Of a stretch of 64,000 bases of DNA, positions 53,867 to 58,860 are shown one piece after another. The DNA is taken from the IMG/VR virus record IMGVR_UViG_3300035670_000018, positions 62,001 to 126,000 of that record, one strand, 5' to 3'. The number at the start of each line of letters is the position of its first letter. The stretch's first letter is position 1. The position numbers and the translations under genes are program-made. The notes beneath the pieces are model-generated. The model ran no database searches, was not told the origin of the DNA, and saw only the letters and a list, made by a program, of their open reading frames with translations. This DNA is from a virus.

Positions 53867-53891
53867 GTCTTAGTACAGACTTAGTTTCTTA

Positions 53892-53929
53892 GAACCCCGA
53901 AGCCAAAAGTTTCGGGGTTCTTCGTTTTT
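53892..53929 (+). terminator. Terminator/attenuator after the leader peptide
   Basis: GAACCCCGAA (53892-53901) and TTCGGGGTTC (53911-53920) form a perfect 10-bp stem, followed by TTCGTTTTT. AGAACCCC (53891-53898) can instead pair with GGGGTTCT at 53850-53857 inside the leader frame. Confidence 0.8.
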
Positions 53930-53932
53930 ATA

Positions 53933-54018
53933 GTTGCGTCCAGTGCATAGCAGATATGCGAAAAAAGAATAAGAAAAGACTTGAAATTGGCTGCGACAAG
54001 CACTATATTAGATATGTA
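53933..54018 (+). promoter_or_regulatory. Palindrome promoter cassette, copy C
   Basis: TTGCGTCCAGTGCATAGC...TATGCG (53934-53960) contains GCATA-gcaga-TATGC, the exact reverse complement of the 15-mer in copy B. Then TTGAAA (53981-53986), 17 bases, TATATT (54004-54009) and the shared AGATATGTAA block. The direct repeats of copies A and B are missing. Confidence 0.6.
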
Positions 54019-54288
54019 AGAGAGAAAAGAGTTTCCCAGCCGCGCGGGACAAGATGCGGTCGCTGTTTAACATTGTTAAGTTCCTATGAGTTACCCTTGC
54101 TCACTCAAGGGCGCACTGAGTAGCGAAATATCCAGTGAGGGACTGTGACTCAGCACAGCCTCACATTCTATCTCTTCAGATATGCACCGGGCATTGTAGC
54201 TACTGCCTAGTGTGGCACAGTCGCGCTGCTTCGGTGGCGTTCAAGATGAACTGTTCGATTCAGTTGGTGCATATCTGAAGTGATAGAA
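54019..54288 (+). ncRNA. Large structured RNA candidate downstream of promoter C
   Basis: No protein frame is supported between 53930 and the tRNA at 54294. Hairpins: CCTTG/CAAGG, and GTGAGG-CTGTG/CACAG-CCTCAC (54135-54164). Then a 22-bp near-perfect stem, 54166-54188 with 54266-54288 (one T-T mismatch), encloses a UUCG hairpin CGCTGC/GTGGCG and a T-arm-like hairpin AACTG-TTCGATT-CAGTT next to the stem. The last part resembles a tRNA with a very long acceptor stem and no CCA. Confidence 0.55.
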
Positions 54289-54293
54289 TACAT

Positions 54294-54696: not shown

Positions 54697-54770
54697 ATCA
54701 GTGTAGTGTAACGGTAGCACGGCAGCCTCCAAAACTGCTTGTCAGGGTTCGAATCCTTGCACTGGTGCCA
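54697..54770 (+). tRNA. tRNA-Trp (CCA)
   Basis: Acceptor ATCAGTG/CACTGGT, anticodon stem GCAGC/ACTGC (one mismatch) with loop CTCCAAA, T-arm CAGGG-TTCGAAT-CCTTG, CCA encoded. Confidence 0.85.
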
Positions 54771-54773
54771 GTC

Positions 54774-54884
54774 AGAAAGAGCGGTAGTCGGAGTGCGAAT
54801 CCGATGAGAACATGCCTGTGATCGCACACAGGCATTAAGTATCCTCACCATAGACTTCGGTCAACATAGAGGAACGCTCTTTCT
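54774..54884 (+). ncRNA. Multi-hairpin RNA closed by a 10-bp stem
   Basis: AGAAAGAGCG (54774-54783) pairs with CGCTCTTTCT (54875-54884). Inside: TCGGA-gtgcgaa-TCCGA, ATGCCTGTG-atcgca-CACAGGCAT (9 bp, perfect), and CCTC/GAGG enclosing GAC-TTCG-GTC. It is tRNA-sized and branched but has no T-loop, anticodon or CCA. It starts 4 bases after tRNA-Trp and ends just before a promoter. Confidence 0.65.
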
Positions 54885-54886
54885 AC

Positions 54887-54915
54887 TTGACTTTACGTGA
54901 TGCCTCGTCTATAAT
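54887..54915 (+). promoter_or_regulatory. Promoter TTGACT-N17-TATAAT
   Basis: TTGACT (54887-54892), 17 bases, TATAAT (54910-54915), 24 bases before the gene at 54940. It restarts transcription within the cluster, directly after the multi-hairpin RNA. Confidence 0.85.
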
Positions 54916-54939: not shown

Positions 54940-55155
54940 ATGGCAAAGATGACGATTAAGAAAGTGATGGAATTACAAGATCATTTCATCAAAGCTGGTA
55001 TTATGAAAGACCCTAAGTCTTATACCGCAGATGAATTGAAGTATCTTAATCCTGCTATTCCATCTGACTTCATTGATGATTATGTTGATGTTCGTGATGG
55101 TAAGAAGAAAGAAAGCGACTGGCAGCGTATTCCGCTGAAGATCGAAGATTTGTAA
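54940..55155 (+). CDS. Small protein, function unknown
   Basis: 71 residues after GAGGTAA. AKMTIKKVMELQDHFIKAGIMKDPKSYTADELKYLNPAIPSDFIDDYVDVRDGKKKESDWQRIPLKIEDL. Helical with a polar C-terminus. Its promoter also serves the tRNAs behind it. No family recognised. Confidence 0.5.
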   Translation: MAKMTIKKVMELQDHFIKAGIMKDPKSYTADELKYLNPAIPSDFIDDYVDVRDGKKKESDWQRIPLKIEDL

Positions 55156-55318: not shown

Positions 55319-55322
55319 GTTT

Positions 55323-55437
55323 AGCGTTGTAGGAGCAGAAGTGACCTTGTTGGGATGGTCTGCTGTATGCGGCTCACAGGCGAGTTGAGGGGTTTGATCA
55401 CCCCAAGTCTGGCGAGGGTTCAATTCCCTCCAACGCT
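55323..55437 (+). ncRNA. 115-nt tRNA-like RNA without CCA
   Basis: Acceptor-like AGCGTTG/CAACGCT (7 bp, perfect) and a true T-arm GAGGG-TTCAATT-CCCTC. Between them are 84 bases with AGCAGA/TCTGCT and GGGGT-ttgatc-ACCCC hairpins and no standard anticodon arm. CTGTATG could present GTA, but with a weak stem. No CCA follows. It may be an aberrant tRNA or a tRNA-mimic. Confidence 0.55.
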
Positions 55438-55524
55438 AATCTAATTTGATCTGGCTACGTAGCAGCAATGTGCGTCATGAATGTCAGACAGTCAACCAAA
55501 TAACTGTGCGGTTGACACCAGTTT

Positions 55525-55794: not shown

Positions 55795-55796
55795 TT

Positions 55797-55871
55797 TCCT
55801 GTGCTTGCAATCTCTCAGTTAAAAGCTGTTGCAAGATTAAGTGTTATGTCTAATATGACATAGACACAGGA
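55797..55871 (+). ncRNA. Two-arm structured RNA with 7-bp closing stem
   Basis: TCCTGTG (55797-55803) pairs with CACAGGA (55865-55871). Inside: CTTGCAA/TTGCAAG (55804-55810, 55829-55835) with CAG/CTG, and TATGTC-taatat-GACATA (55845-55862). The size and 7-bp closing stem recall a tRNA, but no tRNA loops are present. It could also act as a terminator for the convergent minus-strand gene. Confidence 0.5.
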
Positions 55872-55872
55872 T

Positions 55873-56810: not shown

Positions 56811-56904
56811 GCATCCGTATCCCCCTTGGCTACGAACCAAGAGTAAGGTAACTGGAGATGGTCAGAGATGACTAATGCAGGTTCGAATCCTGTCGGATGC
56901 TCCA
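56811..56904 (+). tRNA. Atypical tRNA-Arg (ACG), no D-arm, long insert
   Basis: Acceptor GCATCCG/CGGATGC plus T and CCA, T-arm GCAGG-TTCGAAT-CCTGT. Only TATCCCC separates the acceptor from CTTGG-CTACGAA-CCAAG, the standard Arg(ACG) arm. About 35 bases between anticodon arm and T-arm include GGTAACTGGAG and hairpin GTCA-GAGA-TGAC. The TAACTGGAG string is shared with the other odd tRNA-Arg at 52992. Confidence 0.6.
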
Positions 56905-58649: not shown

Positions 58650-58860
58650 GAATGCTAACTCCGACGGGAGTTGGCCGAGTGCAAGGAAATGACTGCTCAC
58701 CAGGAGCGGTTAACTTGGCTAGATGGTGTGGTGCCCGTGCGCGACTGACGAGAGTCAGAGGCGTATCGTCTCCGACCAAGAGAATCTAGGCTGACACGTG
58801 GCAGATACAAGGTATCTTGGTCGTGTCTTGTGGGTGTACCCCAGTCCCACCTCACCTTAT
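58650..58860 (+). ncRNA. About 200-base structured region between tRNAs
   Basis: No supported frame. Hairpins: AACTCC-gacg-GGAGTT, CTGCT/AGCGG, CTGAC-gaga-GTCAG, GACACG/CGTGTC enclosing AGATAC-aag-GTATCT, and GTGGG/CCCAC. TTGGCCGAGTGCAAGG resembles a Ser-type D-arm and CTCCGACCA resembles a tRNA end, so part may be a decayed tRNA-Ser. A late-type AATAAATA (58643-58650) precedes it. Confidence 0.45.

What the first reader, a model, noticed from the sequence alone, without database searches (positions are those of the whole stretch)
54774..54884. Branched multi-hairpin RNA between tRNA-Trp and a promoter
A 10-bp closing stem holds three hairpins, one of 9 perfect pairs and one with a UUCG loop. 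It is tRNA-sized and well folded but not a tRNA. It directly precedes a strong promoter, so it is a transcript end or a separate small RNA.
Basis: seen in the sequence. Interest (0 to 1): 0.7.

Follow-up and report, generated by a model that had tools for sequence, protein, structure and literature searches.

The report
New kissing-loop RNA in phage tRNA cluster
Between two tRNA genes of a large uncultured phage lies a small RNA gene of a family not previously catalogued, whose four-armed fold, locked by two hairpin loops that pair with each other, has been kept by evolution in at least 26 viral contigs, but whose job is still unknown.

Summary
Window 54774-54884 (+) folds at -44.1 kcal/mol (z -5.6). 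It belongs to an RNA family found here in 26 viral contigs (13 distinct sequences, 47-94% identical) that matches nothing in Rfam 15. Covariation is very strong: 93% of pairs are kept, 27 of 35 pairs show changes on both sides, and none of 500 shuffles reaches this. Two divergent members swap both partners (CGCUA/UAGCG and UGAC/GUCA), so a loop-loop kiss is supported. The core (GGUA, AACAU, CAUUAAGUAUC) is invariant. Twelve of 13 distinct members lie inside tRNA clusters on the tRNA strand, some only 2-5 nt from a tRNA, beside different tRNAs and downstream genes. The promoter after the element belongs to the next ORF and also occurs in relatives without the RNA. Best reading: a separate, trans-acting structured RNA released by tRNA processing, comparable in kind to T4 rnaC/rnaD but not homologous. 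The partner is unknown. One member outside tRNA clusters leads a nucleotide-metabolism operon, so a cis-regulatory role is not excluded.

The parts
54774..54884 (+). whole structured RNA element
   Evidence: MFE -44.1, z -5.6; covariance model match 99 bits, E 1e-21 (the window is in the training set); no Rfam match at E<=10
54774..54783 (+). P1 closing stem, 5' strand (purine-rich)
   Evidence: 9 of 10 pairs show changes on both sides across 13 members
54784..54786 (+). J1/2, GUA, invariant
   Evidence: invariant in all 13
54787..54805 (+). P2 hairpin with 7-nt loop GUGCGAA (54793-54799)
   Evidence: 6 of 6 pairs show changes on both sides
54794..54798 (+). kissing partner in loop L2 (UGCGA)
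   Evidence: complementary to 54822-54826; both partners exchanged in L094 and L138
54806..54811 (+). J2/3, GAGAAC, nearly invariant
   Evidence: partly imposed by the search pattern, but also present in members found by blastn and altered by one base in L255
54812..54835 (+). P3 hairpin (9 bp here; 6-7 bp above a conserved AU/AU step elsewhere), loop AUCGCA
   Evidence: 6 of 9 pairs show changes on both sides
54822..54826 (+). kissing partner in loop L3 (UCGCA)
54833..54843 (+). CAUUAAGUAUC: end of P3, J3/4 and start of P4; invariant
   Evidence: invariant in all 13; partly imposed by the search patterns
54842..54873 (+). P4, variable-length arm; the UUCG hairpin (54853-54862) lies here
   Evidence: closing pairs kept, outermost UC/GA invariant; length and loop vary
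54875..54884 (+). P1 closing stem, 3' strand
54697..54770 (+). tRNA-Trp(CCA) ending 3 nt before the element
   Evidence: ARAGORN
53981..54009 (+). promoter-like site (TTGAAA-17-TATATT), downstream of a strong terminator at 53891-53921; probable start of the transcript carrying Asn, Lys, Asp, Pro, Trp tRNAs and the element
   Evidence: consensus scan only
54887..54915 (+). promoter-like site TTGACT-17-TATAAT of the next gene
   Evidence: conserved in relatives with and without the RNA
54940..55155 (+). 71-aa ORF downstream of that promoter, no known family

Best explanation
It is a phage non-coding RNA gene of a new family. It is probably transcribed with the tRNAs in front of it and freed by the host's tRNA-maturing nucleases (inferred). 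The RNA forms a four-way junction: P1 closes it, P2 and P3 are held together by a 4-6 bp kiss between their loops, and P4 is a free arm (pairs and kiss supported by covariation; intra- versus intermolecular kiss not resolved). This presents the invariant junction strands GGUA, AACAU and UUAAGUA as one binding surface (inferred). The RNA most likely acts in trans by binding one conserved host protein, RNA or small molecule, as a decoy or as the scaffold of an RNP. The partner is not identified.
For: Covariation: 93% of cells paired, 27/35 pairs with changes on both sides, 0/500 shuffles, slid controls fall to 35-49%. Kissing: every member pairs its own loops over at least 4 contiguous bp in one register. 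L094 (CGCUA/UAGCG) and L138 (UGAC/GUCA) changed both sides, and their loop 2 pairs poorly with other members' loop 3. Core invariant. Twelve of 13 members are in tRNA clusters on the tRNA strand; upstream gaps of 2-5 nt to tRNA-Trp, -Pro or -Ala in six representatives, downstream gaps of 9-14 nt to tRNA-Ala or -Met in L101, L086 and L137. Neighbour tRNAs and downstream genes differ between members. One significant match per genome searched that has it. No terminator-like site on the + strand between the promoter at 53981 and the element.
Against: No expression data. No partner or phenotype. Many related phages lack the RNA (some records are fragments), so it is probably dispensable. In four members an ORF with a ribosome-binding site follows within about 30 nt (L138, L113, L124, L114), as for a cis element. 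The kiss rests on two independent exchange events.
Confidence: 0.55

Rival explanations
1. Cis-regulatory leader (riboswitch-like aptamer). The kissing-locked junction binds a metabolite and tunes the gene behind it; copies between tRNAs would tune read-through or are displaced copies.
For: In L138, a phage contig without tRNAs, the element ends about 25 nt before the GTG of a PRA-PH/MazG-type pyrophosphohydrolase ORF followed by DUF6378, thymidylate synthase-like, dCMP deaminase and DNA polymerase genes. L113, L124 and L114 also have a ribosome-binding site and start codon shortly downstream. The architecture (two kissing hairpins over a conserved junction) is like the purine riboswitch, from general knowledge.
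Against: The downstream genes share no evident function. In L101, L086 and L137 a tRNA follows at 9-14 nt; in the window, L004, L036 and L255 a promoter-like sequence follows the RNA. The closest relatives of the L138 gene (L333, L334) have a different structured leader. No expression platform seen.
Confidence: 0.2
2. Processing or boundary element of the tRNA transcript: a 3' barrier, RNase III/P site or a self-cleaving ribozyme of an unknown class that trims neighbouring tRNAs.
For: Directly abuts tRNA ends in several members. Phage tRNAs with adjacent HDV-like theta ribozymes are known (PMC10879173).
Against: Matches no known ribozyme in Rfam and shows no HDV-type nested double pseudoknot. 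A plain barrier would not need some 25 invariant bases and a kiss. Some members are 53-763 nt from any upstream tRNA.
Confidence: 0.13
3. Self-assembling RNA: the complementary loops pair between molecules and build a ring or cage, as in phi29 pRNA or ROOL/GOLLD.
For: Loop complementarity covaries. ROOL and GOLLD, also phage RNAs near tRNA islands, assemble partly through kissing loops (PMC12286853).
Against: The two loops belong to neighbouring hairpins of similar length joined by a short linker, which suits an intramolecular kiss. Absent from many relatives, so not a packaging RNA of this phage group.
Confidence: 0.08
4. Decayed tRNA or chance fold.
For: tRNA-sized and lies among tRNAs.
Against: No tRNA model hit; covariation and an invariant core of a different shape.
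Confidence: 0.01

Closest known systems
T4 rnaC and rnaD (species 1 and 2 stable RNAs)
   Same: ~120-140 nt stable RNAs encoded within 1-6 nt of a tRNA or of each other at the 3' end of a phage tRNA cluster
   Different: No covariance-model match in the T4 tRNA region; rnaC has a tRNA-like T arm, and neither folds like this family
GOLLD and ROOL RNAs
   Same: Phage structured RNAs near tRNA islands, function unknown, use kissing loops (PMC12286853)
   Different: Several times longer; no Rfam match here
Purine riboswitch aptamer
   Same: Two hairpins with kissing loops over a conserved multi-helix junction (general knowledge)
   Different: Four-way junction, unrelated core sequence, no Rfam match, mostly not in a 5' UTR
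tRNA-associated theta (HDV-like) ribozymes
   Same: Phage RNA elements abutting tRNAs (PMC10879173)
   Different: Different topology; the family described here has no HDV double pseudoknot
manA RNA (RF01745)
   Same: Structured RNA in the same tRNA cluster (window 58657-58858)
   Different: A different element; no match at 54774-54884

Membership tests
tRNA | match to RF00005 / ARAGORN cloverleaf with T arm and anticodon arm | tested here: not met
Any Rfam 15 family | covariance-model match at 54774-54884 | tested here: not met
   none up to E 10
T4 rnaC/rnaD | sequence-structure homology | tested here: not met
   R1 and R2 give no match in the T4 region; folds differ
T4 rnaC/rnaD | discrete stable RNA processed from a phage tRNA transcript | not testable with these tools
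   position fits; no expression data
Purine riboswitch | RF00167 core with kissing P2/P3 loops | tested here: not met
   kissing loops present but no RF00167 match
GOLLD / ROOL | Rfam match and large multi-domain fold | tested here: not met
HDV-like/theta ribozyme | nested double pseudoknot | tested here: not met
   covarying pairs give a nested four-way junction plus one loop-loop kiss
HDV-like/theta ribozyme | self-cleavage | not testable with these tools
   needs an in vitro assay
New family described here | P1-P4 four-way junction, L2-L3 kiss, GGUA / AACAU / CAUUAAGUAUC core | tested here: met

The most novel reading that the evidence does not exclude
A new class of phage RNA whose kissing-locked four-way junction forms a ligand or protein pocket, carried in tRNA clusters as a mobile trans-acting decoy against a host factor (for example a tRNA-directed defence nuclease or a nucleotide signal), with one phage using the same fold as a leader of its nucleotide-metabolism operon.
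Probability: 0.15. Interest if true: 0.85.

Novelty: new variant of a known kind. Interest (0 to 1): 0.62.

Why it matters
Large phages carry long tRNA clusters whose non-tRNA content is mostly unread. This is an RNA family, absent from Rfam, with covariation strong enough to fix its fold including a tertiary contact, and with an invariant core that probably binds something. It turns the old question of what the extra stable RNAs in phage tRNA operons do (open for T4 rnaC/rnaD) into a testable one with a defined structure and mutants to make.

Tried and rejected
blastn against 50,697 GenBank phages with the element and with 10 kb around it: nothing. An exact pattern on hairpin 1: nothing. Pattern scan of 84,980 bacterial and archaeal species: 71 pattern hits, none supported by the covariance model (best E 0.26), so no sign of the family in cellular genomes within that pattern. 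L389, L390 and L395-L399 matched patterns but not the model. Weak hits in L006/L007/L008 (E 0.04 with R1, 0.11 with R2) are antisense with a degenerate core; judged chance. Relatives of the L138 MazG-type gene do not carry the family. The nearest cultured phages found by an RNase H-like protein (Stenotrophomonas DLP_6, Xanthomonas X1, Rhodobacter RcXuper, Synechococcus BUCT-ZZ01) have no significant match. Terminator and protein-coding readings rejected: no terminator-like site, and member lengths of 94-127 nt vary without regard to multiples of three. Literature searches found no description of this family.

Full report
What was checked. The window is part of a 167,363-base IMG/VR virus record. 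The region 53.4-60.7 kb holds a cluster of 27 ARAGORN tRNAs, and Rfam adds a manA RNA at 58657-58858. Nothing in Rfam matches it, even at E up to 10.

Finding relatives. GenBank phages gave nothing. IMG/VR relatives were reached through two neighbouring proteins (the 71-aa ORF, and an RNase H-like protein). blastn of the element against those loci found diverged copies. Their comparison showed two constant strings, which were then used as patterns over IMG/VR. Together these gave 13 distinct sequences from 26 viral contigs, counting the window. A covariance model trained on 8 of them recovered five held-out members, L005, L086, L137, L138 and L255, at E about 2e-9 or better. The constancy of AGAACAU and CAUUAAGUAUC is partly imposed by the patterns. 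Members found by blastn without them show the same bases, and L255, found without the AGAACAU constraint, differs there by one base.

Structure. On the 13-sequence alignment, 93% of pair cells are standard pairs, 27 of 35 pairs show changes on both sides and 84 cells carry double changes. None of 500 shuffles reaches any of these, and sliding the partner by 1-3 columns drops pairing to 35-49%. That alignment was fitted to the model; a similar result on the plain MAFFT alignment of 8 members (92.6%, 23 of 35 pairs) shows that this is not an artefact of fitting.

Kissing loops. L2 (UGCGA) and L3 (UCGCA) are complementary. All 13 members can pair L2 with their own L3 over at least 4 contiguous Watson-Crick pairs in one register. 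L094 has CGCUA/UAGCG and L138 has UGAC/GUCA: both sides changed. L2 of L094 or L138 pairs with other members' L3 over only 1-2 contiguous bases. Two independent exchange events are good, not overwhelming, evidence. Whether the kiss is within or between molecules is open. P2 and P3 are similar in length and joined by about 6 nt, which favours an intramolecular kiss (inference).

Anatomy. P1 (10 bp here, purine-rich 5' strand); GUA; P2 with a 7-nt loop; GAGAAC; P3 closed by an invariant AU/AU step; UAAGUA; P4, an arm whose outermost UC/GA pairs are constant and whose length and loop vary (the UUCG loop is particular to the window and its closest relative); one linker base; back into P1.

Setting. 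Twelve of the 13 sequences lie in tRNA clusters on the tRNA strand. They follow tRNA-Trp, -Pro, -Ala, -Gly, -Ile or -Arg and precede tRNA-Ala, -Met, -Glu, -Asn, an ORF or a promoter, with upstream gaps as small as 2-5 nt and downstream gaps to a tRNA as small as 9 nt. One significant match is found in each searched genome that has it. In the window a strong terminator (53891-53921) is followed by a promoter-like site (53981-54009). No terminator-like site on the + strand lies between that promoter and the element, so co-transcription with tRNA-Asn, -Lys, -Asp, -Pro and -Trp is likely (inference). The promoter at 54887-54915 belongs to the next ORF: L002 and L003 keep promoter and ORF but have no copy of the RNA.

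The exception. L138 has no tRNA. Its copy lies about 25 nt upstream of a PRA-PH/MazG-type ORF, followed by DUF6378, thymidylate synthase-like and dCMP deaminase genes and a DNA polymerase gene. This is the best argument for a cis-regulatory, ligand-sensing role. It is one case, its kin lack the family, and three other members precede unrelated-looking ORFs.

Judgement. Shown: a real, conserved structured RNA family with a supported loop-loop contact. Inferred: that it is a separate processed RNA acting in trans. Unknown: partner and benefit. It works somewhat like a kissing-loop aptamer and sits where T4 rnaC/rnaD sit, but it is a member of neither. No literature describing it was found in the held library, which does not include most subscription journals.

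Noticed in passing
window 56811-56902: Unannotated tRNA-like RNA after tRNA-Cys: 7-bp acceptor stem, T arm (GCAGG-TTCGAAT-CCTGT) and an anticodon-like arm CTTGG-CTACGAA-CCAAG (ACG would be Arg), but no ordinary D arm and a long structured variable region. It is conserved (72-92%) in many relatives, with a weaker match in Stenotrophomonas phage DLP_6; some relatives have an ordinary tRNA-Arg(acg) near this place.
   Followed up: partly
window 54150-54292: Another closed multi-branch RNA (MFE -60 for 146 nt; best 115-nt window z -5.3) just upstream of tRNA-Asn, 76-92% identical in several relatives.
   Followed up: partly
window 54016-54150: Conserved non-coding stretch after the promoter-like site at 53981, 78-95% identical in relatives.
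   Followed up: no
window 55795-55872: Three-way-junction RNA candidate (TCCTGTG/CACAGGA closing stem, z -4.7), found only in L021 among the loci held.
   Followed up: partly
window 55321-55440: tRNA-like sequence with acceptor stem (AGCGTTG/CAACGCT) and T arm but about 120 nt long, not called as a tRNA and not found in relatives.
   Followed up: no
L035 1642-1780, L014 3257-3392, L042 2566-2700: Relatives lacking this RNA carry other foldable non-coding sequence at the same site after tRNA-Trp, suggesting the site accepts different RNA genes.
   Followed up: no
L333 2880-2990: A different, strongly folding leader (GGGGGCA/TGCCCCC closing stem, -45 kcal/mol) precedes the homologue of the MazG-type gene that has the family element in L138; no Rfam match.
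   Followed up: partly
L034, L094, L255 (P4 arm): P4 of three otherwise diverged members contains a shared module GGUCUCCGYYAARAGCGGGC, perhaps a separately inherited insert.
   Followed up: no
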